Source of the DNA: Rhodothermus marinus
GTDB taxonomy: Bacteria; Bacteroidota; Rhodothermia; Rhodothermales; Rhodothermaceae
Assembly: GCF_009936275.1 (NCBI RefSeq)
Contig: NZ_AP019797.1
Span: 1,727,501-1,791,500 of the forward strand
Length of the DNA: 64,000 nt
Direction of reading: 5' to 3'
Shown: one piece after another, positions 1 through 12,139 of the stretch
Position numbering within the stretch: position 1 is the stretch's first letter
Layout: each line of letters opens with the position of its first letter
Made by a program: the position numbers and the translations under genes
Notes under the pieces: model-generated
Databases searched by the model: none
Seen by the model: the letters and a program-made list of their open reading frames with translations, nothing else
Told to the model about the DNA's origin: nothing

Positions 1-63
1 CGCGGCCAACCGCCCCAGCAGGATCACGCGGTTGACCGTCCGCTTCGGCTGCAATGGTTCCAT
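1..63 (-). CDS. Probable single-strand DNA-binding protein, N-terminus only (partial)
   Basis: Only the first 21 codons lie in the window; the gene runs off the left edge. An ATG at 63 opens a frame whose residues 10-18 read NRVILLGRL, which resembles the conserved first strand of bacterial SSB proteins (N-K/R-V-x-L-x-G-x-L). SSB coats single-stranded DNA in replication and repair. The start lies 7 nt after the stop of the acidic zinc-ribbon gene on the same strand, with a GAAGG ribosome-binding site, so the two are probably co-transcribed. The call rests on this short motif and is tentative. Confidence 0.45.
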   Translation of the reverse strand, partial: MEPLQPKRTVNRVILLGRLAA

Positions 64-70
64 GGGGCCT

Positions 71-340
71 TCAATCTCCGTACATTTGATCCCGGCAATC
101 CTCGCACAGGGTCATGTACCCATCGTCATAGCCATATCGTCCGACAGGTGCTCCGCAGATATCGCAGGTCGCCAGCCCGTCGTCCAGCTCATCGTCCCAG
201 TCGTCCCATTCGTCGTCCCAGTCTTCTTCCCAGTCTCTGGCATCGGGCAGGTCCTGGAAGCCTTCGTAGTCGCCGGACTCCGGATCGCCTTCGAATTCAT
301 CGTCGAATTCGAAGTCCTCTTCGTACCAGAAGTCATTCAT
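71..340 (-). CDS. Highly acidic small protein with a C-terminal zinc ribbon
   Basis: This 89-residue protein has two parts. Residues 1-55 are almost entirely Asp, Glu, Trp, Tyr and Phe, probably a disordered acidic tail. Residues 59-82 carry two CxxC pairs (C59/C62 and C79/C82) with 16 residues between, the pattern of a zinc ribbon. No enzyme family was recognised. The acidic part could mimic DNA or bind a basic partner such as the SSB-like protein encoded just downstream; this is inference. A TATAAT-like box lies about 40 nt upstream. Confidence 0.7.
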   Translation of the reverse strand: MNDFWYEEDFEFDDEFEGDPESGDYEGFQDLPDARDWEEDWDDEWDDWDDELDDGLATCDICGAPVGRYGYDDGYMTLCEDCRDQMYGD

Positions 341-380
341 AGTGAATCTGCGCTAAAAGTGCAACATATCTTTCGCCCAC

Positions 381-386
381 ATTATA
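381..386 (-). promoter_or_regulatory. Probable -10 box for the acidic zinc-ribbon gene
   Basis: On the minus strand this reads TATAAT, a perfect sigma-70-type -10 hexamer, about 40 nt before the ATG at 340. No convincing -35 box was seen. The region 341-519 is also the divergent upstream region of the RecD-like helicase gene. Confidence 0.35.
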
Positions 387-519
387 CGGCACTTTCTGCA
401 CGCTGGCCCTTTTTCGGAAAACCCGGATTGACGGGGCAACTTTCGGGGAAATTCCCGAACGAGGCGGCACGGCCGGCTGCTGCGTAAACGCCCCGAAAAA
501 ATCTCCACCACCAAACCCG

Positions 520-2565
520 ATGCAGTTGATGGTAGAACTTTCAGGCGAACAGCAGCGCATACTTGATCAGCTACTTGCCTGGCTTGATCGGCCCGAAGCG
601 CCTCCGATCTTCATCCTCACGGGCAGTGCCGGGACCGGCAAAACCCTGCTGATCCGGCACCTGGTGCAAGCGTTGCACCAGCGCCGTATCAAGTACGCGC
701 TGGCTGCCCCCACCGGACGTGCCGCCCGTCTGCTGGCGGATCGTACCGGAGAGGATGCGCGCACGCTGCACAGCCTGATCTACATCCTCGACCGTTATCA
801 GCTCATCGAAGAGGCCGAGGCGCAGGCCGAAGATCCGTTGAGCCTGCGCCTTCACTTTGCGTTGCGGTCTGCCGAGCTCGACGCGCGCCTCATCATTGTG
901 GACGAAGCCTCCATGGTGGGCGACGTGGTTGGCGAGCAGGAACTGTATCGGTTTGGCTCGGGCCGGCTACTGCTCGACCTGCTGAGCTACGCGCGCCTGA
1001 TGCCACGACGCGCCGGGGAGGTGTCCTCCCGACTGCTGTTCGTCGGCGATCCGGCCCAGCTCCCACCGGTCGGCCAGTCGATCTCGCCCGCACTCTCCGC
1101 CGAATATCTCCGGGAAACCTTCGGTCTTTCGGCCGAGACGGCCCATCTGCAAACGGTCTTCCGCCAGCGCAAAGGGCATCCCATTCTGGAGGCGGCCACG
1201 GCGCTGCGCAACGCGCTCGAGAACAACCGCTTTCACACGTTTCAACTTCCTGCACAGCCCCCCGACCTTCGCCCGGTCGGTATCGAGGAGGCCATCCAGA
1301 TTGCCGCGCAGGACTTCGAGCGTCAGACGCCCTCCGTGCTGCTGTGCCGGACCAACGCCCTTGCCCGTAAGCTCAATGAAGCCGTCCGCGCCCTGCTCTG
1401 GGGAAAGGAAAGCCTGCCATTACAGCCCGGCGACCTGCTGCTCGTCAACCGCAATGCCCCGCTCTACAGCCTTTTCAACGGCGATCTGGTGCTGGTCGAG
1501 ACCGTCGGCCCCCTCGAGCATCGTCGCGTGGGACGCCGGGGTCGCCCGCCCGTGGACCTCTACTTTCGCGACGTGATTCTACGCTATCCGCACGACAACC
1601 CCCGGAGACGCATCACCTGCAAATTGCTCGAAAACCTGCTCGAGAGCCCGGACGGCCAGCTCTCTCCAGACCTCATTCAGGCGCTGCTGATCGACTTCTA
1701 CCTGCGCAACCGAACGCTCAAGCCCGGCTCGCCTGAGTTTCATCTGGAACTGGCACGCGACCCGTACTTCAACGCACTGCACGTCCGCTACGGCTATGCC
1801 ATGACCGTCCACAAGGCGCAGGGTGGTGAGTGGCGCCGGGCGGCCGTGGTGTTCACCGACTGGAAACACTTCCGCCATGCCGACTTCTTCCGCTGGGCCT
1901 ACACGGCCATCACTCGTGCCCGCGAGGAATTGCTGACCATCGATGCACCCGCCTTCGAGGCGTTTTCGGAGATGCGCTGGCAGCCGGCCGCTTCCGTCCC
2001 CGCCGCTGAGCAGACTGCTGGCTCAGCGGCGCGTTTTCCTCTGAAGGCGCTGGAAACCTACCACCGACGCCTCACCGAAGCGCTCAGCGCAGAAGGCATC
2101 GAGACGACCGACGTCGAACTGCTGCAGTATGCAGTACGCTATCATCTCAGCCGGGAAGATCGCACGACCCGAATTCAGTACTACTACCGTGGCAACGGGC
2201 AGGTCAGCCGCATTGTCACGCTGGGCGGCGCCGACGATCCCGAGCTGACGCAGCAGGCCTATGCCCTGTTCGAGCGCATCCTTTCCGAGCCGCCCCCCGC
2301 TTCGGATGAGCTCCCGGAAAACCCCTTACTCCGCGAGTTCCTCGAGCGGGCCCGGCATCGTCTGGAAGGATCCGGCATTCGGATCGTCAACTGGAAAGAA
2401 ATGCCCTATGCCCTCCGCCTTTACTTCAGCGCTGACGGCGAAAATGCCACCATCGACTTTTACTACAACCGACGGGGTGTCTGGACCCACGCGCAGCAAG
2501 TAGGGCGATCGAGCTCCGGCTCGCTCTTCGCACGCATTCAATTGCTGCTACAGTCCGACGGCTGA
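520..2565 (+). CDS. RecD-like SF1B DNA helicase / AAA-family ATPase
   Basis: This 681-residue protein is an ATP-driven DNA helicase of the RecD/Pif1-like branch. Visible motifs are a Walker A GSAGTGKT (35-42), Walker B IIVDEAS (about 125-131), motif III GDPAQLPP (about 176), a motif V-like TVHKAQGG (about 429) and motif VI YTAITRAREEL (about 460). The last 180 residues after the helicase core match nothing I recognise and may bind a partner. A second ATG at 529 could also be the start. The next gene begins 8 nt after the stop, so the two form an operon. It is not a full RecD, since no recB or recC is present. It may act in repair or in defence. Confidence 0.85.
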   Translation: MQLMVELSGEQQRILDQLLAWLDRPEAPPIFILTGSAGTGKTLLIRHLVQALHQRRIKYALAAPTGRAARLLADRTGEDARTLHSLIYILDRYQLIEEAEAQAEDPLSLRLHFALRSAELDARLIIVDEASMVGDVVGEQELYRFGSGRLLLDLLSYARLMPRRAGEVSSRLLFVGDPAQLPPVGQSISPALSAEYLRETFGLSAETAHLQTVFRQRKGHPILEAATALRNALENNRFHTFQLPAQPPDLRPVGIEEAIQIAAQDFERQTPSVLLCRTNALARKLNEAVRALLWGKESLPLQPGDLLLVNRNAPLYSLFNGDLVLVETVGPLEHRRVGRRGRPPVDLYFRDVILRYPHDNPRRRITCKLLENLLESPDGQLSPDLIQALLIDFYLRNRTLKPGSPEFHLELARDPYFNALHVRYGYAMTVHKAQGGEWRRAAVVFTDWKHFRHADFFRWAYTAITRAREELLTIDAPAFEAFSEMRWQPAASVPAAEQTAGSAARFPLKALETYHRRLTEALSAEGIETTDVELLQYAVRYHLSREDRTTRIQYYYRGNGQVSRIVTLGGADDPELTQQAYALFERILSEPPPASDELPENPLLREFLERARHRLEGSGIRIVNWKEMPYALRLYFSADGENATIDFYYNRRGVWTHAQQVGRSSSGSLFARIQLLLQSDG

Positions 2566-2573
2566 AGTGCACT

Positions 2574-4055
2574 ATGACCACCGCCATCTCGACTGAAGAG
2601 CTCCGGCGCTTTAAAGCGTTGTGCCAGCAGAAAAACTTCGGGCAGGCGCTCCCCCTGGCCCGGCGCTTTCATCCGCTGCTTGTTCAGAACGTCCATCTGG
2701 CCAGACAGTGGGGCTGGGTGATCTACGAACGACTGAAAGATCTGGCAGAGCAGGCGCGCGCAAAGCAAGCCCCGGCATCCCGCCAGGCGAACAGCCTGCC
2801 CGAACATCTTTCCCGCAAGATCCGTGAAGCCCTGGTCGAATATGCCCGGCTCCCGAATCTGCATACCCCTGATTTGCTACATGCAATGATACTCGTCATG
2901 GTCTGCCGCATCGGGATCCGATGGTCCGGCGTGCTGGGCTTTCTGTACCACGTGCGCGCCTTCGACACGCTGCGCCCCGAGGACAGGCTTCCAAAGACCT
3001 ACGGGGATCGGACCTATCCCTCGATCGAACAACTGCTGACGCAGACGGTGGCCGCCGCCCTTGCAAAGCTCCCCCTCCGGGACCAGCGGCCTGAGGTGCT
3101 GGACTGGGCCTGTGTGCAGGTGCAGCAGCGCCTCGACCGCTTTCCTGACGAGCCATGGATTCCCTATCACCTGGCCTGCTATCTGATCAAAAAGCAACGA
3201 GGTCCGGACGCACGTCCGCTGCTGGCCCCCGTGCTCCTGCAACACCGCCATAAGAGCTGGATCTGGGAACGGGTGGCACGGGCCAACCACGACCGGCCAG
3301 AACATCGCCTGACGGCCCTGACGCAGGCCCTGCGGCTCGCAGAGCGGGAGCTGCCCGCCGTCCGTTTCAGGCTACACCTGGAGCTGGCAGATCTGCTGGC
3401 CACCCGGCAGCGCCACGATGAAGCCGCTGCCCAGCTTCAGGCTGCCCGCCGCCTGGAAGAACAGCTCGGCCGTAACGTGCGCGACGACCGCAATCCTCTC
3501 TGGCAACGCTATCGGCACATGTTGCAGCAACCCTGGTTCCGGCAACGGGCCGAGCAGACCAACCTGCCCCGGACACCCACCCTTACCATCGAGCCCGAAG
3601 CAATGCTCTACGAACACCTGCCGACCACGGAATCCTCTGGCGTGATCATCGGCCACAACTCCGAAAAAGGTCTCACGATCATTCGCCTGTCCCCGTCGAA
3701 AATAGTCTGCGTCAAACACAGGAAATTTCCCGACGCTTCCCGGCTCGAACCGGGCACGGTGGTCTGGCTGCGCCTGGTAGCAGAGCAGGTGGTGGCGCTC
3801 GAGCCGCGGCCGGACCATCCGCTTCCTGATCTGGTCCGGTGGTTTCGGGGCCGCCTGCTGCAACCCGACGGACGCGCTTTCGCCTTCGTAATTACCGGGG
3901 ACGAGCAGCGCATCTTTATCCCACCCCGGCTTAACAGGAAGTTAAACCTGGAGGCAGACGCTACCGTGGAGGTGCTGGCCGAGCGCACCATCGACCCCAC
4001 GAAAAACACACACTCCTGGAGCGCCCTGAAAGTTAAACCCGTTGCTGACCAATAG
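2574..4055 (+). CDS. Unknown protein: helical-repeat body with two C-terminal OB-like domains
   Basis: No family was recognised for this 493-residue protein. Residues 1-320 are Ala/Leu/Arg-rich and look like a TPR-type helical solenoid, with LTQALRLAERELPA and AAAQLQAARRLEEQL as repeat-like helices. Two beta-rich stretches follow, about 350-415 and 423-490. The second (FRGRLLQPDG, then FAFVITGDEQRIFIPP) resembles a cold-shock/S1 OB fold, so nucleic-acid binding is plausible. It sits 8 nt behind the RecD-like helicase and is probably its dedicated partner. The function is inferred from position and fold guesses only. Confidence 0.7.
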   Translation: MTTAISTEELRRFKALCQQKNFGQALPLARRFHPLLVQNVHLARQWGWVIYERLKDLAEQARAKQAPASRQANSLPEHLSRKIREALVEYARLPNLHTPDLLHAMILVMVCRIGIRWSGVLGFLYHVRAFDTLRPEDRLPKTYGDRTYPSIEQLLTQTVAAALAKLPLRDQRPEVLDWACVQVQQRLDRFPDEPWIPYHLACYLIKKQRGPDARPLLAPVLLQHRHKSWIWERVARANHDRPEHRLTALTQALRLAERELPAVRFRLHLELADLLATRQRHDEAAAQLQAARRLEEQLGRNVRDDRNPLWQRYRHMLQQPWFRQRAEQTNLPRTPTLTIEPEAMLYEHLPTTESSGVIIGHNSEKGLTIIRLSPSKIVCVKHRKFPDASRLEPGTVVWLRLVAEQVVALEPRPDHPLPDLVRWFRGRLLQPDGRAFAFVITGDEQRIFIPPRLNRKLNLEADATVEVLAERTIDPTKNTHSWSALKVKPVADQ

Positions 4056-4148
4056 CCTTTCTCAGGCTTTCTTCCGGTCGCTCTCACGCGGCGGCAGGGA
4101 CGACTTCCGTAATGCTTCAAAATCGTTCCCTCGCTCAAATTTTACCGG

Positions 4149-4346
4149 CTACGTGGCGCTCTTATCATCCCCGCCGCTACCTTTTCTATCTGTTGCTTCT
4201 TTTTTTGGAGAAAATATGCGTCTTAATACAACTTCAAAGAAAATAAGCCATGCGAGCAAACTGACAAATAAACTCAATCGTAAAGGCCCCGACGAATAAT
4301 AATGCTCTTTATAAAACTCGTCATCAAACTTAAAAAAAAGAAACAA
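4149..4346 (-). CDS. Small single-span membrane protein, AT-rich
   Basis: This 65-residue frame starts with TTG and overlaps the end of the upstream membrane gene by 17 nt, so translation could be coupled. It has one hydrophobic span (about residues 24-45) and a charged C-terminus. Base composition is far more AT-rich than the neighbours, as for its partner. No Shine-Dalgarno was seen and no family recognised. It may not be a real gene. Confidence 0.35.
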   Translation of the reverse strand: MFLFFKFDDEFYKEHYYSSGPLRLSLFVSLLAWLIFFEVVLRRIFSPKKEATDRKGSGGDDKSAT

Positions 4347-4614
4347 TAGTGACTATTGCTGCAATAAACAGAATCTTATCACAGACGAAAAAGCGCCACA
4401 GAATAAGCAGAAAGTAAATAACAATAAGCAGAATCGCACATTCAGGCACGAGCACGATTTCTGATCCCAGAAGATAAAACACGAGCAAGAAGAGCAATGT
4501 AAGGGCAAATATCAATATGTTTAACTCAGGGCATATTCGACAGACTTGATTGTAGCGATAGATCAGAAATGCAAGAGAACCTATTCCGAGCAGCAACCAG
4601 ATAATGATAATCAT
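4330..4614 (-). CDS. Small polytopic membrane protein, AT-rich
   Basis: This 94-residue protein is almost wholly hydrophobic, with three predicted spans (about 1-20, 30-52 and 58-92). It starts with ATG, preceded by AAAGG about 10 nt upstream. A Bacteroidota-type -7 box, TATCTTTG, lies on the same strand at 4747-4754, next to the left end of the CRISPR array. The gene and its overlapping downstream partner form an AT-rich island in GC-rich DNA, which suggests recent transfer. No family was recognised. Confidence 0.5.
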   Translation of the reverse strand: MIIIIWLLLGIGSLAFLIYRYNQVCRICPELNILIFALTLLFLLVFYLLGSEIVLVPECAILLIVIYFLLILWRFFVCDKILFIAAIVTIVSFF

Positions 4615-4746
4615 CCGAACTGGCCTTTACGAAGCCTTCTGCGGGCATATTTTCTGCTACAATAAAACGCCATCAGAACAGACGCATGAGTCGTTCAGCC
4701 CATCGAATGCTGAGAAGCCTTTCCTGAAGTGCTACAGGCGCTGAAG

Positions 4747-4754
4747 CAAAGATA
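4747..4754 (-). promoter_or_regulatory. Possible -7 promoter box (TAnnTTTG type)
   Basis: The minus strand reads TATCTTTG, matching the Bacteroidota -7 consensus TAnnTTTG. It points towards the two small membrane genes and lies 34 nt outside the first CRISPR repeat. No clear -33 TTG box was found, so the call is weak. Confidence 0.3.
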
Positions 4755-4787
4755 AAGGCCTCTTTTCGCTTTTACGCCCCGCCGAAA

Positions 4788-6021
4788 GTCGTAATCCCCT
4801 TTTCATCGGGTCAGGTTTTCAGACAGGAGGTGCGGATAGCCAGGACCAGACCCACAACCAGAAATCGGTCGTAATCCCCTTTTCATCGGGTCAGGTTTTC
4901 AGACTGTTTGTTCAGTGTCCCGTGTGCGTGAATGACGTCAACGCCAAAGTCGTTGAGTCGTAATCCCCTTTTCATCGGGTCAGGTTTTCAGACCTGGCCG
5001 TACAATATGCGGACGAGGATTGCGTAAGCGCCGTGTCGTAATCCCCTTTTCATCGGGTCAGGTTTTCAGACTTGAGCTCGGCGATGAAGTTAGTTGAAAG
5101 GGAATGGCGTCGTAATCCCCTTTTCATCGGGTCAGGTTTTCAGACTTGGCCCGCCGCGAGAGAGCCATCATGGCTTCGCCTTCTACCGGGTCGTAATCCC
5201 CTTTTCATCGGGTCAGGTTTTCAGACACGAATTGAAGCAGCTGAGGACATTCAGCAGCACTTCCTGCTGTCGTAATCCCCTTTTCATCGGGTCAGGTTTT
5301 CAGACGCCGCCCGGGTTTCAGTCGAAAACTTGCCCGACGTAAACGGTCGTAATCCCCTTTTCATCGGGTCAGGTTTTCAGACCGCCCCTCAGCAAGGAGA
5401 ATTTGTGCGCCTCGGCGACCTCATCATTACCGAAGCGCGGGAATGGTCGTAATCCCCTTTTCATCGGGTCAGGTTTTCAGACCTGCTGAGCGGGCTCTAT
5501 CCCCAGGCGAAACAGTCGACGTCGTAATCCCCTTTTCATCGGGTCAGGTTTTCAGACTCGAGAACAACCGGCGCTTCCAGAATCTCCACGTGTTCGAGTC
5601 GTAATCCCCTTTTCATCGGGTCAGGTTTTCAGACAGCCAGCACGTCGTCCGACTGCTCGGCAGCACCTGGCGTCGTAATCCCCTTTTCATCGGGTCAGGT
5701 TTTCAGACGTCTTCACGGTCCCCTTCAGCTTATCGAGGGCCACCGTAAGAGTCGTAATCCCCTTTTCATCGGGTCAGGTTTTCAGACCTCAGTTGTCGCC
5801 GTCATGGCTCGTCTCCGTTCGATTGGGTCGTAATCCCCTTTTCATCGGGTCAGGTTTTCAGACTGGACCAGAGCGGCGAGTTGGACAATCTCCGGAGCAT
5901 TCGCAGTCGTAATCCCCTTTTCATCGGGTCAGGTTTTCAGACGAGCCGTTGAGGAGAGTCTTCCGGCGGTGGTTAATTGAGGCCGTCGTAATCCCCTTTT
6001 CATCGGGTCAGGTTTTCAGAC
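4788..6021. CRISPR. CRISPR array, 16 repeats of 37 bp and 15 spacers
   Basis: Sixteen identical 37-bp repeats begin GTCGTAATCCCC and end GGTTTTCAGAC. They start at 4788, 4868, 4957, 5035, 5109, 5190, 5269, 5346, 5446, 5521, 5598, 5672, 5751, 5827, 5906 and 5985. Spacer lengths are 43, 52, 41, 37, 44, 42, 40, 63, 38, 40, 37, 42, 39, 42 and 42 nt. Read on the minus strand the repeat ends GGGGATTACGAC, like repeats that leave an 8-nt ATTNNNAC-type crRNA 5' tag. I therefore infer leftward transcription from a leader at 6022-6205. No cas1, cas2 or interference gene is in the window; a CARF gene lies on the leader side. Confidence 0.98.
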
Positions 6022-6205
6022 CCCATTGTTACGGGGCCCATCCGAACCGGCCTGTTTGCCGCCAAAAAGGCCGATTTTTTCGCCATCAGCACGTCAAAAA
6101 ACGGAATAGAATTTGCTTCGAAAACCCTGTGACAATTCCGTGTCACACCCCCTTTCTCTCTACCTCCCTGTACACTCCAGAGCATAAGCCTCTGTCGCTA
6201 AAATG
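6022..6205 (-). promoter_or_regulatory. Probable CRISPR leader
   Basis: This 184-nt non-coding stretch lies between the last repeat and the stop of the CARF gene. It is AT-richer than its surroundings, with A/T runs near 6065-6125. If the array is transcribed leftwards, as the repeat orientation suggests, this is the leader and the promoter lies here. There are no degenerate end repeats to confirm polarity. Confidence 0.45.
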
Positions 6206-7747
6206 TCAAGCCCCGGCCGGCCCGAGTTCCACCCACTCCAGCACCTCCGAACGCGGCAACTGGGGCGCGCGCAGCGACTCCGCTACCACCCGGGCCGCTT
6301 CGTGCAGAAAACCCTCCAGCCTGTTGCGCACCGCTTCGTACTCCTGTTCGTCAAGCGCGGCACTACCCGCCAGCAGAAGAGAGTCGCGACAGCGTTCCAG
6401 CGCCTCGCGCAACACCGAACGCCGTCGGGCAAACAACTGCCCCACCGGATCGCCAAGCGCCTCCAGCATATGATAGCTCAACTCCGGGGAACCCGGCCAG
6501 CGATCCCGCGACACCGCCGGTTCTGCCCGCAACACTTCCGGTAGGCGCGCCTGATCCGGATGCCTGATGTCGATGCCATGCGCCTGCTGCAACCGCACCG
6601 TCCCGAAAAGCTCCACGGCCCGCACCAGACGCACGACCGCGTCGTCGTAACGTCCCTGATGCGCCCGGCGTGCCGCCGCAAGCAGCAGATCGGCCACTGC
6701 CTCCAGGCCGGGCTTCTGCGCTTCGGCCAGCGTCCGAAGTCGCGGCAGCCACGCGCTCCCATGCGCTCCTGCCATACCGAAGCCCACCAGCGCCTGCCGG
6801 TACTGCCCCACGTCCCAGGCCGCCAGCCCCTGTACAATCTGATACAGCCGCAATACCTGCGTGCGACGTGCGCCGCTCAGCGAAAGGGTACGCAGCAACT
6901 CGCGCACGATCTCTGCAGCCGCCACGTAGTCGTACCGATCCAGCGCCTGACGCAGCAAACGCAGTTCAAGGTGCAGCAGCACGTCGTCGGCCGCCACACG
7001 CATGGGAACGTCCGTCCCGGCAAGGACCTGACGTAGATCGCGCCGCACACCGACGTTCAGTTGCAACTCCCAGCCCAGCAACACGGCCCCGATCACCAGC
7101 GCCGCCGACATCGTCTTGGTCCCGCCGGTATAGTTGGCCACCACGCGCGCCTCGGGAAATCGCGACCGGATCCGCCGGTGCAGTGCAAACAGGGCCGACA
7201 CACAACCGGCCAGATCGTCCGGATCGGACCACACCTCCACGGCATAATGCGTCGCGGGCAGCCCTGCCGCTCGGGGAATGTTCGGCGCATCGCCCGCTGT
7301 TTCCACCAGCCGCCGCGAGTCGGGCGAGCAGATGAAGCACACAAAGCTCTGCGACGGGTCGAGCCGCTGCACGGCCCGAATCAGCGGCTCGGGTGAACCG
7401 CCCACCGTAAGCAGCAGTACGGTTTCGACACGGGAAGGCGCGTGCTGCTCCTGGGCCGCTACCTCCTCGCCCCAGAGTGATTCCTTCAGGTCCTGCGCAA
7501 ACCTCCGGGCCGCTTCCTGCGCCGCCTCCTCATCGGGAAACTCGAACTCCCCGACGATCTCGGCGCCTGCGGGCAGCCGCCCCGCATCGACCTCCTGAAA
7601 AATCCGATAGGCCTGCTCATCATGGAAGGTTTCTCCGGGAGCGATTACTGGCACAACACCCACGCGTTGCTGCCCTTCCAGCTCCTGCATCACAAGCACC
7701 AGCGACCGTTGGAACGGCAGCCGCACCAGCAGAAAACGCACGCGCAT
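6206..7747 (-). CDS. CRISPR-associated CARF-domain protein (TIGR02710-like)
   Basis: This 513-residue protein carries the two hallmarks of a CARF ligand-binding domain. TVGGSPEP (114-121) follows a hydrophobic strand, and NYTGGTKTMS (205-214) is the signature loop shared by Csm6/Csx1-like and TIGR02710 proteins. In this class CARF binds cyclic oligoadenylate made by type III Cas10 (family knowledge). The C-terminal 250 residues are helical; the stretch GRYDDAVVRLVRAVELF followed by HGID resembles the TIGR02710 C-terminal domain. I saw no clear HEPN Rx4-6H nuclease motif. About 105 residues precede the CARF core and match nothing I know. It reads towards the array and is divergent from the helicase. 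Confidence 0.85.
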   Translation of the reverse strand: MRVRFLLVRLPFQRSLVLVMQELEGQQRVGVVPVIAPGETFHDEQAYRIFQEVDAGRLPAGAEIVGEFEFPDEEAAQEAARRFAQDLKESLWGEEVAAQEQHAPSRVETVLLLTVGGSPEPLIRAVQRLDPSQSFVCFICSPDSRRLVETAGDAPNIPRAAGLPATHYAVEVWSDPDDLAGCVSALFALHRRIRSRFPEARVVANYTGGTKTMSAALVIGAVLLGWELQLNVGVRRDLRQVLAGTDVPMRVAADDVLLHLELRLLRQALDRYDYVAAAEIVRELLRTLSLSGARRTQVLRLYQIVQGLAAWDVGQYRQALVGFGMAGAHGSAWLPRLRTLAEAQKPGLEAVADLLLAAARRAHQGRYDDAVVRLVRAVELFGTVRLQQAHGIDIRHPDQARLPEVLRAEPAVSRDRWPGSPELSYHMLEALGDPVGQLFARRRSVLREALERCRDSLLLAGSAALDEQEYEAVRNRLEGFLHEAARVVAESLRAPQLPRSEVLEWVELGPAGA

Positions 7748-7881
7748 GTCTGTCCCGTTTTTTCAGAAGTTCTGTTTTCGATCGGAAAGTTAAGCGCTAC
7801 GGCCCCCTTTCTGCAGGAAAATCCGGAAAGCTCTTTTTTGAGAAAAGCGGGCATTAAATTCGGGTAAGAGAGGTAACAAAC

Positions 7882-7897
7882 GACCCGCTTCGGGGTC
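7882..7897 (+). promoter_or_regulatory. Small hairpin just before the helicase ribosome-binding site
   Basis: GACCC and GGGTC pair around the loop GCTTCG, and TTT follows. The hairpin ends 6 nt before the AAGGAG of the helicase gene. It could be a weak terminator/attenuator or a leader structure affecting translation. It lies in the divergent region 7748-7914 that must hold promoters for both the CARF and helicase genes. Confidence 0.4.
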
Positions 7898-7914
7898 TTT
7901 CCAAAGGAGCGTTG

Positions 7915-10900
7915 ATGCGCAATACGTGCATGGTAGTTTTCCAGGCGCCTGTTGACCCGGATCGTTCCCCTCAATCCCCACCGCATCGGATCTGGCTCCA
8001 CCAGGACGTTCTCGAATTTCTCCACGGTCGGGATGCTTCCGTGCGTCGGCTGGGCATCGTTCTGCGCCAGATTGCAGCCCGAGGACGCCCCAACCGCATC
8101 AAGAGCTGCCGCACCCCTGAAAATCGCGGCTGGCTGCGCACGCCCATGGGAGGCGGCGGTAGTGGCATGCACTTCTACCTGTGGTGGGCGCCGAGCGACA
8201 GCGAACGCGTAGCTCCGCTCGTCCCCTCCGACAACGAGGTTTTTCTTCGCACGATTCGCCACCACGACAACCACGATCCACTTGACTGTGGCCAGCGCCA
8301 CGACTACATCCTGCTGTCCCTTCAGGAGCTGCAGACAGAACACATCGACGGCGTTGACTGCGCACCCTGGACGCCCGAGCAACGAGCCTTTATCGACGCC
8401 GGTGAAGTTACACGCATCGTGCTGGGCAGGCCGGGCTCGGGCAAGACGGCCAGCCTCTGGCGTGCCGTGGAGCGTCATCCGGCACGTCATCTGCTGTATC
8501 TGACCTGGTCCCGGGAACTGGCCTGGCAGGCGCACCTCAATTTCTCGGCCCTGGCACCCGGCCGAACCGTTCGGTGCTGGCATTTTTCCCGGCTTCTTCG
8601 GGCCATCACGCAGCAGGACGAACCGCGCCTTACGCTGACGGAAAGCCGCAGGCGCTTTCGCGAAGCACTGCAACTGTTGAGTGCCCGGCAACTGGGCCCC
8701 TGGAAGCAGCGCCTGACGGCCCTCCATGCAGAACTGCGTGCCTTTCTGATCGGTCGGGCACGCCCCGGCCATGCATCTACCGTTTTCCACAGGCCGGTTT
8801 TCCACCTGCGGCAGGAAGCCTATGCCGGCCTGCGGCGGGACGATCGCCATCCGGATGCAATAGAGAAGGCCTGGCATGTTTTCGAACTGCTCTGCCGCAA
8901 CGAACAACTTGCGGAAATCTTTCCCGAACTGGCGGCCGCCTCACAGGCCATTCGAATCCTTCGGGCCGGACGTCTGCCGACCATCCTGGAAACGATCGAG
9001 GGCATTGTCGTCGATGAAGTACAGGACCTGACGTTGCTGGAGCTGTCGGTTGTGGTGGAACTCTGGCACATGCTGGCGCGGCGACGTTCGACCCCTCCGC
9101 TTCTGCTACTGGCGGGCGACGAAGGGCAGACGGTCCGTCCTTCGGGGTTTCGCTGGGGACCCTACAAGGAATGGCTGAGCGAGCGCATTGCGCCACCTCG
9201 GGATTACGAACTCGGCGAAAGTCTTCGTTGCCCGGCCAATATCGCGCGCACGTTCGAGCGTGCCGCCCGCTACTACAGCAAACTGCCGCGCGAGGAACGC
9301 CCGGCGCGTCAGCGTCGCGATACCCGGGCCGCACCCGGTGGCCATCTCATTTACGTAGCTGCCGAAAACCAGCAACAGGCCACCTCCCTGATCCAGAAAC
9401 TGTGCGACGAGGAATCGCTGGTGGTCGTCTCGCTGGAAGATGAAGTGCCCGAACACATCTGGTCCCCGGCCCTCATTAAAGGGCTCGAGCGCCAGACCGT
9501 GGTTGTGCTGAATCCGGGCGCAGTGCTTGAAAGGCTGGATCGTTTCGTTGCTGAAGAGCACTTTGCGTTCGACCGCGAAGACTATCGCACCGAAGTCGAT
9601 CGGCTGCGCGTGGCCCTGAGCCGCTCCAGCGAAACACTGGTGTTTCTGGACGTAGCGCCCACCGCCGCGCAACGTGCCTGCAGCCTGCGGTTGCTCGGCG
9701 ACGACGTGGTAGAGGTGCCGCCACACGAACTGCTCGATAATCTGGAGCAGGCGGAGCTCTCTCTGCTGGAGCGCATCCAGGCGCGTCTGGAGGAGTTTTC
9801 TGTGCGCATCGACGACGACCCCGTGCAGGCCCTTCGTCTGGCACTGCGCGCCCGCGATCTGCAGCTGCGAATTCGAAGCCTGGGCGAACACATCCCCGCG
9901 AACATCGCCCGAGAGGTCCCCCGGGCCATTCTCCTCTCAATAGCACGCCTTTTGACCGACGATCGTGTACTTCCCGAAGTGGAAACTCCGGACCTGCTGC
10001 AGCAGGCTCGCGAGGCCGCCAGCGAACTCGGCCCGGAGCACCTGCGTGCATTCGACGAACTGGTACGCTGGCATCAATCCGGTCGCGTTTTCCCGGCCGC
10101 ACTGCTCAAAGCCGCCTGCCGGCTCACCGGTGAAGCCGAATGGTTACGGCAGGCCCTCTCGGCCATTGCCTACAGCCTGCACGCGGCCCTGGAGCGTAGT
10201 GCCCGTCGCCCGGAATCGGCCGGCGTCTTCCTGGAGGATGTGGCGGCCTGGCTTCGCTTCCTGGACTACGCTGGTAACCTCGAGGAAGCAGTGCGACAGC
10301 TACGGGGCCTTGCTTTCGACGCACTGCTTGCGGCCGGCGATCTGGCCACGGCGCAGCAAATGCTGGAACGCATCCAGCCGCCCGATCTGCTCCGCAAAGG
10401 GCGCTTGCTGGAAGCAAAGAACGAGCTCGAAGAGGCTATCGAAGCCTATCTGCAGGCCGGCGCATACACCGAAGCCGAACGCGTCCGCCAGCGGCTCTAC
10501 CACTTCCGTAACGATACGCTGCGACGCTTCCGCCACCTGGCCGATCAATGTTCGGCTCTTGAGCAGATCCCTGTGCTGACTTCCATGCTTTCCGGTGCAC
10601 AGCAAAGGCTGGCCACCCGGTATATCCAGCTCCACTTTGAAGCAAGAAAAGATGCCAGTGTTCAGAACACACTTTATGCATTCCTCAGCTACCTTCAAGC
10701 AGTACATCAGCATACGGATCAACTGGAAGATCCCGAGCTGATGATGCTTGGCGCTCTGGAAGAACTGACGCGCCGGCGGCACAGGGCCTGCGCTGCAGCG
10801 GCTCAGCTACTCTTCGAGCACTATGGCACACGTTCGATGGCCCGCCGCCTGCTCGCATCGCCCGCCGGAGAACTCCCGGAATGCAGCGAACCGGCCGTTT

Positions 10901-11010
10901 TCTGCCTGGCGGCCTCCACGCTGGAAACCCTCAGAAACTGTCCGCCCTACCAGAACCTGCTTGCGTTTATCGACCATGGAAAACCGACACGCCGCGCTGC
11001 TGAAAGCTGA
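7915..11010 (+). CDS. UvrD/Rep-like SF1A helicase with unusual N-terminus and long helical C-terminus
   Basis: This 1031-residue protein has Walker A GRPGSGKT (about 170), Walker B IVVDEVQDLT (about 364), motif III LLLAGDEGQT (about 400), ESLRCPANIAR (about 434), motif V KGLERQTVVVLN (about 523) and motif VI RLRVALSRS (about 564). The core is unusually compact. Residues 1-130 precede it and contain GRPNRIKS, YLWW and IRHHDNHDP; I suspect a RelE/ParE-like fold, but this is a guess. Residues 620-1031 form a helical, TPR-like solenoid (for example 826-850). The ATG at 7915 is preferred over a TTG at 7912 because AAGGAG lies 5 nt before it. The next gene overlaps by 35 nt. A phage-defence role is inferred from context. 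Confidence 0.8.
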   Translation: MRNTCMVVFQAPVDPDRSPQSPPHRIWLHQDVLEFLHGRDASVRRLGIVLRQIAARGRPNRIKSCRTPENRGWLRTPMGGGGSGMHFYLWWAPSDSERVAPLVPSDNEVFLRTIRHHDNHDPLDCGQRHDYILLSLQELQTEHIDGVDCAPWTPEQRAFIDAGEVTRIVLGRPGSGKTASLWRAVERHPARHLLYLTWSRELAWQAHLNFSALAPGRTVRCWHFSRLLRAITQQDEPRLTLTESRRRFREALQLLSARQLGPWKQRLTALHAELRAFLIGRARPGHASTVFHRPVFHLRQEAYAGLRRDDRHPDAIEKAWHVFELLCRNEQLAEIFPELAAASQAIRILRAGRLPTILETIEGIVVDEVQDLTLLELSVVVELWHMLARRRSTPPLLLLAGDEGQTVRPSGFRWGPYKEWLSERIAPPRDYELGESLRCPANIARTFERAARYYSKLPREERPARQRRDTRAAPGGHLIYVAAENQQQATSLIQKLCDEESLVVVSLEDEVPEHIWSPALIKGLERQTVVVLNPGAVLERLDRFVAEEHFAFDREDYRTEVDRLRVALSRSSETLVFLDVAPTAAQRACSLRLLGDDVVEVPPHELLDNLEQAELSLLERIQARLEEFSVRIDDDPVQALRLALRARDLQLRIRSLGEHIPANIAREVPRAILLSIARLLTDDRVLPEVETPDLLQQAREAASELGPEHLRAFDELVRWHQSGRVFPAALLKAACRLTGEAEWLRQALSAIAYSLHAALERSARRPESAGVFLEDVAAWLRFLDYAGNLEEAVRQLRGLAFDALLAAGDLATAQQMLERIQPPDLLRKGRLLEAKNELEEAIEAYLQAGAYTEAERVRQRLYHFRNDTLRRFRHLADQCSALEQIPVLTSMLSGAQQRLATRYIQLHFEARKDASVQNTLYAFLSYLQAVHQHTDQLEDPELMMLGALEELTRRRHRACAAAAQLLFEHYGTRSMARRLLASPAGELPECSEPAVFCLAASTLETLRNCPPYQNLLAFIDHGKPTRRAAES

Positions 11011-11518
11011 ACAGCAGATTCAGGAAATTGCCGAAGAGTTGAGCCGGCTGCGTGACGCAACCCTTTTGCTGACCGAAGCGCAGCATGGTGTCGATCAGGT
11101 ACTGCGCAGCTGCCAGCACCTTAATGATCGCGTGGCCGATCTATTCGAACACCTCCATGCGGCCGCTAGTGCGCTTCAGGAAGCCGGCTTTCCGGAATTG
11201 AAGGCAAGCCTGGATCAGATGGGCACCGATATAGAAAAGCTGCAGGCGCGCCAGCATGAAGCCTCACGCCAGCTTGAGGCGCTGCATCAAACGCTCAGGT
11301 ACCTTCATGAATCAATCGTGCAAATTGTGAACGGCTACAACAGCCTGCAGGCCACCGGCGAACGACTGCAGACCGACCTCGAATCGCTTATGCTGGCCAC
11401 CTCGCAGCTGGCCGATCGGATCGCCACCATCGAAACGCGCCAGCAGCGATCGCTCTGGATGCTGGCAGTCGTGGCGGGCCTTGTGCTGCTGACGCTGATC
11501 ATCATGCTCTGGCCCTGA
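10976..11518 (+). CDS. Tail-anchored coiled-coil protein coupled to the helicase
   Basis: This 180-residue protein starts at an ATG inside the last 35 nt of the helicase gene, so its translation is likely coupled. Residues 5-150 are heptad-rich helix, with segments such as LLKAEQQIQEIAEELSRL and IEKLQARQHEASRQL. Residues 156-180 are one hydrophobic span at the very C-terminus, ending IIMLWP. This is the layout of a tail-anchored inner-membrane protein with a cytoplasmic coiled coil. No family was recognised. It may tether or control the helicase at the membrane (inference). Confidence 0.75.
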   Translation: MENRHAALLKAEQQIQEIAEELSRLRDATLLLTEAQHGVDQVLRSCQHLNDRVADLFEHLHAAASALQEAGFPELKASLDQMGTDIEKLQARQHEASRQLEALHQTLRYLHESIVQIVNGYNSLQATGERLQTDLESLMLATSQLADRIATIETRQQRSLWMLAVVAGLVLLTLIIMLWP

Positions 11519-11520
11519 GC

Positions 11521-11539
11521 ATCGGGTATGCATCCCGAT
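11521..11539 (+). terminator. Short hairpin after the tail-anchor gene
   Basis: ATCGGG and CCCGAT pair around a 7-nt loop just 2 nt past the stop codon. No T-run follows, so it is at best a weak or Rho-assisted terminator. Confidence 0.3.
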
Positions 11540-11565
11540 CCTGCGGTCCGGAGAGCGGGCCACTG

Positions 11566-11613
11566 CCTTGTGTAAGGAATAGCGCTATAGTCAGCAACAG
11601 TCCTTACACAAGG
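11566..11613. repeat. Perfect 13-bp inverted repeat
   Basis: CCTTGTGTAAGGA (11566-11578) and its exact reverse complement (11601-11613) flank a 22-nt centre that contains AGCGCT. The hairpin lies between the convergent ends of the tail-anchor gene and the frameshifted DUF234-like remnant. It could be a bidirectional terminator without a T-run, an operator, or the scar of a small mobile element. Confidence 0.6.
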
Positions 11614-11705
11614 GGCCTGCTGCCTGAACTACCAGACGCATCCTGTGGAAGCAACGCGCGGGGCCGTTCTCGCGGACCACGTCAATGCGGGCCGGGCGTC
11701 GGTCT

Positions 11706-12139
11706 TCAGCCTGTTCTGAAGATCAGCAACAGCAGCAACAGAATAATCAGCCCCAGCGTGCCCAGTACCAGCGTAACCCTCGTCTGGAGTGCTTTAAGCG
11801 TCTCCTGCAGCCGCCCCGACTCCTCTTCCATCAGCGATCCGGGCGCAAAGCCGCCGCTGGAAAAAAAATGAAATACCGCACCTGCTCCGGCAACCTCTGC
11901 CGCTGAACCAGCCTCTTCCATCGCGATTGCAGCTCCCTGAGCACCTCCACCCCTACCGGTCGTTGCGTCCATTTACACTCCCCGATTGTCCAGCTTCCAT
12001 CTGCATGCTCGGCCATCAGATCCAGGTCAAAATCTCCCGCCCATTCCCGCCCCGTCCGCACTACCGGAGGCACCTTGAGCTCGGCAGCAGCATAACGCTC
12101 CATGTAATGGCAAAGAAGGGATCGATATGTTTTGATGTT
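11706..12139 (-). pseudogene. Truncated, frameshifted DUF234/PD-(D/E)XK-type protein with a membrane tail
   Basis: The minus-strand frame 12139-11831 encodes HYMERYAAAEL and later FDLDLMAE, then WTIGECKW. This is the D...ExK-like pattern of the nuclease-fold C-terminal domain (DUF234) found on archaeal-type ATPases. The ATPase part is missing: the frame opens after a stop at 12140-12142, in AT-rich DNA. At a run of eight T (minus strand, 11868-11861) the similarity appears to pass into the -1 frame. That frame gives FFSSGGFAPGSL, a short helix (MEEESGRLQETLKAL) and a 20-residue membrane span ending FRTG at 11706. Either one T was lost, or -1 slippage makes a long form. An intact short ORF starts at ATG 12103. 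Confidence 0.55.

What the first reader, a model, noticed from the sequence alone, without database searches (positions are those of the whole stretch)
7915..11518. Two-gene cassette: UvrD-like helicase with extra domains plus tail-anchored coiled-coil protein
The sequence shows a 1031-residue SF1A helicase with complete motifs, 130 unassigned residues in front and about 400 helical residues behind. A 180-residue coiled-coil protein with a single C-terminal membrane span overlaps it by 35 nt. The cassette lies beside a CRISPR array and a CARF gene, next to a nuclease-fold remnant. SF1 helicases recur in phage-defence systems (family knowledge). A membrane-tethered helicase-sensor pair is inference and matches no system I can name.
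Basis: partly seen in the sequence, partly recalled or inferred. Interest (0 to 1): 0.7.

Follow-up and report, generated by a model that had tools for sequence, protein, structure and literature searches.

The report
Toxin-fold helicase with membrane-anchored partner
Next to CRISPR genes of a heat-loving bacterium sits a gene pair, a DNA/RNA motor protein whose front end is predicted to fold like a known family of bacterial toxins and a small protein that anchors in the membrane, and the same "motor plus membrane anchor" layout recurs with a different motor in other bacteria, which suggests an undescribed design of bacterial defence.

Summary
In detail: a complete SF1A helicase gene (7915-11010) overlaps by 35 nt a 180-residue coiled-coil protein with one C-terminal membrane span (10976-11518), beside a 16-repeat CRISPR array and a CARF-HEPN gene. 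The block is 78.6% identical to Rhodothermus marinus plasmid pRMAR01.

Three additions change the reading. (1) The "130 unassigned residues" are predicted to fold like RelE/YoeB/HigB toxins; the 50 structural matches listed are toxins of that kind or Cami1. (2) The RelE+SF1 core is a rare family whose C-terminus is swapped near residue 830; in 8 testable relatives outside Rhodothermus (5 lineages) there is no tail-anchored partner. (3) The Rhodothermus C-terminus and partner resemble those of a neighbouring, otherwise unrelated RecQ/DUF559 (PsyrT/DpdF-like) helicase pair on pRMAR01. That RecQ family has a tail-anchored gene directly downstream in 9 of 12 testable loci, against 0 of 21 control RecQ loci (12 fully assessable).

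Most likely it is a membrane-tethered toxin-helicase defence cassette assembled by module exchange. Motor, predicted fold and anchor are supported; binding, nuclease activity and defence role are inferred.

The parts
7915..11010 (+). RelE-fold + SF1A helicase + helical C-terminus (P0001, 1031 aa)
7978..8349 (+). N-terminal domain of predicted RelE/YoeB/HigB fold (residues 22-145), with invariant W-R-T, YLWW and RHHD
   Evidence: AF2 pLDDT 85, pTM 0.81; VIA Z 8.9, rmsd 1.9 over 77 with YoeB 2a6r; Foldseek HigB2 prob 0.96, E 0.047; invariant columns; dN/dS 0.095
8359..9714 (+). SF1A helicase core (about residues 149-600)
   Evidence: motifs; UvrD/HelD matches
9715..10401 (+). helical region shared with Acidobacteriota and Planctomycetota homologues (residues 601-829)
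   Evidence: BLASTP alignments to P0009, P0010 and P0011 end at residues 822-856
10402..10965 (+). C-terminal helical module (residues 830-1017) shared with the RecQ-DUF559 helicase of pRMAR01; proposed docking site
   Evidence: BLASTP E 2e-9, 28.5% over 193 columns; 49.7 bits against best 30.4 of 1000 pattern-preserving shuffles
10976..11518 (+). tail-anchored coiled-coil partner (P0002 without its leading T, 180 aa), overlapping the helicase by 35 nt
11012..11200 (+). conserved N-terminal segment of the coiled coil (codons 13-75), proposed helicase-docking part
   Evidence: dN/dS 0.067 against 0.245 for the whole gene; similarity to P0005
11444..11515 (+). C-terminal membrane span
   Evidence: hydropathy rule
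6206..7747 (-). CARF-HEPN Csx1/Csm6-like protein, divergently transcribed neighbour
4788..6021 (.). CRISPR array, 16 repeats of 37 bp
11706..11837 (-). remnant: C-terminal tail and membrane span of a second tail-anchored protein (P0005-like), the pRMAR01 RecQ partner
   Evidence: 37 of 41 residues identical; DNA colinearity with pRMAR01 stops at 11837

Best explanation
The cassette is a membrane-tethered 'toxin-helicase' of the defence type. The large protein is an SF1A translocase carrying an N-terminal RelE-fold domain, the presumed effector (RNA cleavage on ribosomes as in RelE/HigB, or an RNA/DNA-binding version of that fold). Its C-terminal helical module is a docking piece taken from, or shared with, the neighbouring RecQ/DUF559 helicase. 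It binds the coiled coil of a tail-anchored protein that holds the complex at the inner membrane. When foreign or damaged DNA, entering at or replicating near the membrane, engages the motor, the RelE domain would be released or positioned to stop translation. Shown here from sequence: gene structure, complete helicase motifs, predicted RelE fold, predicted tail anchor, kept gene overlap, module exchange at about residue 830, and location in a CRISPR/CARF island shared between chromosome and plasmid. Inferred: physical interaction, substrate, nuclease activity, trigger and defence role.
For: Motifs and fold. RelE fold; the list includes Cami1, solved with cA4 on the 70S ribosome. Three of the weak SF1 relatives were scanned and each has a sub-cut-off ParE, YoeB or HigB hit at the N-terminus. 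Pair, overlap and CARF context are the same on pRMAR01 and pRHOM17201; about 31 kb of the chromosome is colinear, with gaps, with pRMAR01's cas/CARF region. Module sharing with RecQ/DUF559. RecQ family with tail-anchored partner: 9 of 12 testable loci by the rule, 10 counting L066, plus the 5 plasmid loci opened, against 0 of 21 control RecQ loci. The RecQ family matches PsyrT and DpdF. Defence genes beside other SF1 members: Hma-like genes beside the Picosynechococcus homologue, an AriA/OLD-like ATPase beside G937's. Constraint is strongest on the N-domain (0.095) and coiled-coil codons 13-75 (0.067).
Against: The SF1 homologues outside Rhodothermus have no tail-anchored partner: 0 of 8 with room downstream, from about 5 lineages (three of the loci are 93-94% identical Planctomycetota, two are 87% identical Bryobacterales). 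The helicase of one R. marinus plasmid has an in-frame stop. No Pfam RelE/ParE hit to P0001 itself; profile comparison with the relatives' RelE-like domains is weak (probability 7%). In Foldseek's own list only HigB2 (E 0.047) and Cami1 (rank 5, E 1.3) of the 50 rows shown are of this kind, the rest being cupins and other folds; VIA realigned Foldseek's candidates. P0002-P0005 similarity falls to E 0.01 with low-complexity filtering, and a profile of coiled-coil N-termini does not beat shuffles, so wide homology of the anchors is not shown. RecQ C-terminal profiles barely see P0001 (E 0.037 without P0006, 0.00085 with it, in an 8-protein database). The C-terminal module is the least constrained part of the helicase (0.284). 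Neighbours of the Acidobacteriota and Planctomycetota homologues were listed but not scanned for defence families, apart from G937's ATPase.
Confidence: 0.5

Rival explanations
1. Toxin-antitoxin reading: the tail-anchored protein is an inhibitor that sequesters a toxic RelE-helicase at the membrane. The system acts mainly as an addiction or stress module of the plasmid or island, not as a phage sensor.
For: Predicted RelE fold; overlapping genes. The RecQ-type RqlH and PsyrT are toxic without their DprA-like partners (PMC4670107, passages). In SG0.5JP17-172 the helicase carries a stop while the partner ORF is open, the order of loss expected for a toxin.
Against: The partner is a membrane protein; no antitoxin family stood out in its matches (lists capped at 25). 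SF1 homologues elsewhere lack such a partner. RqlH toxicity was assigned to a PRTase domain (PMC4670107, abstract passage), which P0001 did not match.
Confidence: 0.25
2. Plasmid or DNA-uptake maintenance: the pair and its RecQ cousin process DNA entering at the membrane (conjugation, transformation) or assist plasmid replication.
For: Carried on plasmids with a replication initiator and a ssDNA-binding protein nearby. A RecQ cousin sits with a DprA-like protein, and the RqlHI authors discuss, with reservations, a link to competence (PMC4670107, passages).
Against: Here it is on the 3.43 Mb contig, and RecQ relatives lie on contigs of 2.2-3.9 Mb; patchy distribution (2 of 40 genomes); a RelE-fold domain is not expected in a maintenance helicase (inference).
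Confidence: 0.15
3. Fortuitous neighbours: the helicase acts by itself (as its Planctomycetota and Acidobacteriota homologues seem to) and the coiled-coil gene is an unrelated hitchhiker left from the RecQ cassette.
For: Other SF1 homologues lack it; the coiled-coil similarity is modest and filter-dependent; the SF1 pair is known from one genus only (three replicons).
Against: Same overlap in both lineages, constraint on the partner (0.25; 0.067 in its N-terminal part), and among the SF1 members seen only those with the RecQ-like C-terminus have the partner.
Confidence: 0.1

Closest known systems
PsyrTA / RqlHI (RecQ-type helicase PsyrT/RqlH with DprA-like PsyrA/RqlI)
   Same: Large accessory-genome helicase with extra domains; the pRMAR01 RecQ relative, whose C-terminus P0001 shares, matches PADLOC PsyrT at E 1e-64.
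   Different: P0001's motor is SF1A, not RecQ; no DprA-like gene beside it; RqlHI is described as a two-gene operon, and the words 'transmembrane' and 'coiled' do not occur in that paper's main text (PMC4670107).
RelE/YoeB/HigB toxins and Cami1
   Same: N-terminal fold by AlphaFold and VIA; Cami1 likewise belongs to type III CRISPR signalling (recalled).
   Different: Here the fold is fused to a helicase, with its own invariant set (W-R-T, YLWW, RHHD); catalytic activity untested; no antitoxin gene recognised beside it.
Gabija GajB / UvrD-type SF1A helicases; HelD
   Same: SF1A core motifs and fold.
   Different: GajB profiles match only marginally (best E 0.0028); Pfam UvrD below cut-off; no GajA among the neighbours scanned.
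Dpd system helicase DpdF
   Same: RecQ-like relatives of the neighbour score best against DpdF (E 1.5e-86 for P0006).
   Different: Concerns the RecQ neighbour, not P0001; other Dpd genes were not looked for.
NTP-dependent conflict proteins with FGE-sulfatase modules (recalled)
   Same: A Planctomycetota homologue ends in a PF03781 domain (E 6e-40), a swapped C-terminal module.
   Different: Rhodothermus carries a helical module and a separate anchor instead.

Membership tests
SF1A (UvrD-like) helicases | Walker A, DExx, and the later SF1 motifs in order | tested here: met
   G..G.GKT, DE.QD, D..Q, KGLE, RVA.SR invariant in both alignments; motif names recalled
SF1A (UvrD-like) helicases | UvrD fold | tested here: met
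   Foldseek to 4c30, 1qhg and others at E about 1e-10; yet Pfam UvrD-helicase is 16.7 bits, below its cut-off of 23
RelE/ParE superfamily (N-domain) | RelE-type alpha/beta fold | tested here: met
   predicted model; the 50 entries listed by VIA are toxin-antitoxin toxins or Cami1 by title, best Z 8.9, rmsd 1.9, 77 aligned; Foldseek E only 0.047; some superfamily assignments recalled
RelE/ParE superfamily (N-domain) | recognisable sequence profile | tested here: inconclusive
   no Pfam hit for P0001; hhalign with relatives' RelE-like domains has probability 7%
RelE/ParE superfamily (N-domain) | catalytic residues and ribosome-dependent RNase activity | not testable with these tools
   invariant R, H, D, W and Y residues exist; geometry and activity not tested
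PsyrTA / RqlHI | RecQ-type helicase | tested here: not met
   P0001 has an SF1A core; only residues 830-1016 resemble the RecQ neighbour's C-terminus
PsyrTA / RqlHI | adjacent DprA-like partner | tested here: not met
   adjacent genes are the CARF-HEPN gene and the coiled-coil gene
Gabija | GajA OLD-family partner and GajB match | tested here: not met
   GajB E 0.0028 at best; no OLD ATPase among the neighbours scanned
Type III CRISPR ancillary effector | CARF or SAVED sensor in the protein | tested here: not met
   no CARF match in P0001's lists; P0002's lists are capped at 25 rows; the neighbour P0003 has one

The most novel reading that the evidence does not exclude
Tail-anchored coiled-coil proteins are a general, so far undescribed 'membrane dock' for conflict helicases. 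One docking module serves motors of two superfamilies (RecQ/SF2 with a DUF559 nuclease-like domain, and SF1A with a RelE toxin fold) and has been exchanged between them in Rhodothermus. The helicase would work as a membrane-stationed sentry that couples detection of incoming DNA to translation arrest or DNA cleavage.
Probability: 0.4. Interest if true: 0.8.

Novelty: new variant of a known kind. Interest (0 to 1): 0.62.

Why it matters
If true, it adds a subunit class (tail-anchored coiled-coil docks) to helicase-based bacterial immunity. It suggests that PsyrT/DpdF-like RecQ helicases of the DUF559 kind often have an overlooked membrane partner, also on enterobacterial plasmids. It also gives a testable architecture in which a RelE-type toxin fold is controlled by a translocase rather than by a protein antitoxin. 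The junction at about residue 830, where a helical dock is exchanged for a sulfatase-modifying-factor domain or other tails, is a natural handle for asking what the C-terminal module senses or binds.

Tried and rejected
Housekeeping UvrD/PcrA: rejected; 2 of 40 genomes searched carry it, own included, and Pfam UvrD is below cut-off. Phage origin: no tblastn match at E 1e-5 in 50,697 phage records; no relative among viral contigs (single-protein query, near relatives only). Pfam, PADLOC, NCBIfam and PHROG hits of P0002 look like coiled-coil noise over many unrelated families. Profile of RecQ C-termini against P0001: not convincing without P0006. Profile of coiled-coil N-termini: does not separate real partners from hydrophobic-pattern-preserving shuffles, so family-wide homology of the anchors is not claimed. 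The complex was not modelled: the two structure jobs went to the full helicase and the N-domain. The C-terminus of the full model (residues 820 on) is at pLDDT about 50 and was not searched alone. The absence of other families from the VIA list is not evidence.

Selection caveats: the five plasmid RecQ loci opened were picked by me from 30 listed of 237 records. The 13 genome loci are the matches at E <= 1e-100 other than G004; L062 and L063 are 93% identical, so the independent count is nearer 8 of 11. Of the 30 loci returned, 9 belong to the test family and the other 21 were the controls: 17 had at least 500 nt downstream, and in 5 of those the next ORF ran off the locus, so 12 were fully assessable. 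In genome-search runs with profiles only part of the first-look candidates was scored (for example 2 of 7), so the counts are lower bounds. Samples 'of' a centre genome include that genome.

Literature: PsyrTA + RecQ, RqlH (71), tail-anchored + coiled-coil + helicase + anti-phage (95: no paper), RelE + UvrD (96), RelE + superfamily 1 helicase (108), PsyrTA + defence (109), Rhodothermus CRISPR (110), RecQ + DUF559 (113: no paper), RelE domain + helicase + CARF (114: no paper). Only PMC4670107 was opened, as passages; the other papers were seen as search listings only. What Shos, Hma, Dpd and Cami1 are, beyond PADLOC labels and entry titles, and the conflict-system FGE domains are recalled.
Full report
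What is there. Position 7915-11010 (+) encodes a 1031-residue protein and 10976-11518 (+) a 180-residue one; they overlap by 35 nt. The window lies in a single-contig genome of 3.43 Mb that has the same genus label as the genome holding the R. marinus plasmid copy (G004; same coordinates as NC_013502). Upstream are a divergent CARF-HEPN gene (6206-7747, PADLOC CARF1--CARF_HEPN E 5e-106), a 16-repeat CRISPR array (4788-6021) and a two-gene TOTE-like candidate defence pair (520-2565 and 2574-4055, PDC-M16A and PDC-M16B, E 3e-269 and 8e-286).

Island and history. The window is colinear with R. marinus DSM 4252 plasmid pRMAR01 from position 3 to 11837 (5521-11837 is one alignment of 78.6% identity). 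The chromosome upstream of the window continues the match, with gaps, through pRMAR01's cas and CARF region: about 31 kb in all, the left end not reached. On the right, colinearity ends inside the tail of a second tail-anchored protein. On pRMAR01 that protein (P0005, 202 aa) and a 1243-aa RecQ/DUF559 helicase (P0006) follow the SF1 pair in convergent orientation. The window has kept the last 41 residues of P0005 (37 identical) beside a DUF234-like fragment. Its genome's one RecQ match at E <= 1e-20 is a 597-residue frame, not of the long kind, and profile A8 found none there. Thus the SF1 pair outlived its RecQ neighbour here. Constraint, from one pairwise comparison: dN/dS 0.172 for the helicase (N-domain 0.095, core 0.127, helical 0.169, C-terminus 0.284) and 0.245 for the partner (codons 13-75: 0.067). 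Against this, the copy on plasmid pRHOM17201 has an in-frame stop in the helicase. Of the 7 genomes of the genus searched, 2 have the helicase; of 195 in the class, the same 2. The partner was found in the same two genomes, with the P0005-like protein of G004 as a weak second match and one weak hit inside a long frame in G028.

The helicase. Motifs are complete and conserved across phyla. The AlphaFold model (mean pLDDT 71.8) matches UvrD/PcrA and HelD. The N-terminal part, folded alone with seven homologues in the alignment, gives pLDDT 85 and pTM 0.81. The 50 entries listed by VIA are toxin-antitoxin toxins (YoeB, RelE, HigB, YafQ, ParE types) or Cami1; the best is YoeB 2a6r with Z 8.9, rmsd 1.9 over 77 residues. 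Foldseek alone gives HigB2 first, probability 0.96 but E 0.047; in its 50 rows shown only that chain and Cami1 (rank 5) are of this kind. Sequence profiles do not reach it (probability 7%). Three more distant SF1 relatives scanned (L022, L033, L037) have sub-cut-off ParE, YoeB or HigB hits at the N-terminus, so fusion of this fold to SF1 helicases looks older than this family. The invariant residues (W-R-T, YLWW, RHHD) could form an active site; this is inference.

A rare family with a swapped C-terminus. Matches at E < 1e-100 with profile A3: 1 of 246 genomes in the sample around the Planctomycetota member, 2 of 244 around the Cyanobacteriota member, 3 of 297 around the Acidobacteriota member and 2 of 296 in the window's phylum. 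At E <= 1e-10 the counts are 2, 11, 9 and 5. Each sample includes its centre genome, and only part of the candidates was scored. Homology of P0009, P0010 and P0011 to P0001 ends at residues 822-856. Beyond that, the Planctomycetota member scanned carries an FGE-sulfatase domain (PF03781, E 6e-40), Acidobacteriota members a short different tail, and the G449 member a long extension that looks coiled-coil by eye (no Pfam match). Of 8 homologues with room downstream, none has a tail-anchored ORF within 400 nt; they represent about 5 lineages. Defence genes flank two: Hma-like genes beside the Picosynechococcus copy, which itself has an internal stop, and an AriA/OLD-like ATPase beside G937's. The neighbours of the others were not scanned.

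The borrowed module. P0001 residues 830-1016 match P0006 residues 1050-1240 (28.5% over 193 columns, E 2e-9). The real score of 49.7 bits compares with at most 30.4 in 1000 shuffles that keep the hydrophobic pattern. The partners P0002 and P0005 match at E 4e-9 unfiltered, 37.7 bits against at most 29.3 in 1000 such shuffles, but only E 0.01 with low-complexity masking. A wider RecQ C-terminal profile sees P0001 only marginally; outside P0006 the one other RecQ seen is L061 (E 0.002 for P0001, 5e-5 for P0008). The exchange is best read as local, between neighbours on Rhodothermus plasmids.

The RecQ plus tail-anchor layout is common. Among 296 genomes of the window's phylum, 14 have a RecQ/DUF559-type helicase at E <= 1e-100. 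Leaving out G004, 13 loci were extended. One runs off its contig. Of the other 12, 9 have directly downstream (-45 to +27 nt) an ORF of 114-501 aa with a single C-terminal membrane span; a tenth (L066) has that span plus a second hydrophobic stretch; L067 has a helical ORF without a span; L070 has neither. L062 and L063 are 93% identical. The five plasmid loci opened (Haliscomenobacter, Salinibacter, Klebsiella, Thermomicrobium, Thermus) also have one, in Salinibacter about 100 nt away and in Thermus beyond a transposase. Control: 0 of 21 other RecQ loci from the same genomes, 12 fully assessable. Background: in the 13 loci, 10 of 69 non-overlapping ORFs of 90-600 aa pass the rule, 9 of them the partners. 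The Klebsiella/E. coli version joins a ShosA/PsyrA-like DprA protein, a HAD-DUF559-RecQ protein and the anchor and is present in 7 of 5,426 complete E. coli genomes.

Mechanism. The best-supported reading is a motor with a toxin-fold effector, docked to the membrane through its C-terminus. Shown by sequence or prediction: motor, fold, anchor, kept gene overlap, module exchange. Inferred: binding, trigger, RNase activity, anti-phage function. A toxin-antitoxin reading, with the anchor as inhibitor, is the main rival and would explain the stop in one helicase copy.

Known or new. It is not a PsyrTA/RqlHI, Gabija or CARF effector by the features tested (membership table). No paper in the held library joined tail-anchored, coiled-coil, helicase and anti-phage, RecQ and DUF559, or RelE domain, helicase and CARF; such term searches can miss papers with other wording. 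In PMC4670107 (passages) RqlHI is described as a two-gene operon. I rate it a new variant of a known kind: helicase-based conflict systems.

Noticed in passing
window 520-4055 (+): Two-gene TOTE-like candidate defence pair (RecD-like helicase with TBP-TOTE domain plus S1/CSD-TOTE protein; PADLOC PDC-M16A and PDC-M16B), with an equivalent pair at the same place on pRMAR01.
   Followed up: partly
L019 2687-8774 (Klebsiella plasmid; same region in 7 of 5,426 complete E. coli genomes): Three-gene unit: DprA-like (ShosA/PsyrA match), HAD-DUF559-RecQ helicase, tail-anchored coiled-coil protein annotated as hypothetical; looks like a ShosTA/PsyrTA hybrid with a membrane subunit.
   Followed up: partly
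L009 10761-11066; L043 2438-2734 (Bryobacterales): A small ORF of about 100 aa directly after the SF1 helicase resembles, by eye, the helicase's own C-terminal tail, as if the tail module were duplicated as a separate gene.
   Followed up: no
L071 4725-5873 (chromosome upstream of the window): A TnpB-like ORF (by eye) sits in a gap of the otherwise colinear alignment with pRMAR01, so an insertion in the chromosomal copy or a loss from the plasmid is likely.
   Followed up: no
L022 895-2919 (Thermomicrobium plasmid): A 674-aa protein with an above-cut-off UvrD match and a ParE_toxin match just below cut-off (22.7 against 23 bits), a more distant toxin-helicase fusion.
   Followed up: partly
L007 46-11944 (Picosynechococcus plasmid): The SF1 homologue, broken by a stop, sits after an Hma-like set of genes (helicase, ATPase, DUF1156 methylase, DUF499) and an AlkB-like gene.
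   Followed up: partly
L061 6814-8319: The longest tail-anchored partner found (501 aa), against 114 aa in L062 and L063: the length of the rod varies more than fourfold while the anchor stays.
   Followed up: no
L095 1-501 (control RecQ locus): The next ORF after this 757-aa RecQ looks DprA-like by eye, so some control loci may be RqlHI-type pairs; what lies beyond was not seen.
   Followed up: no
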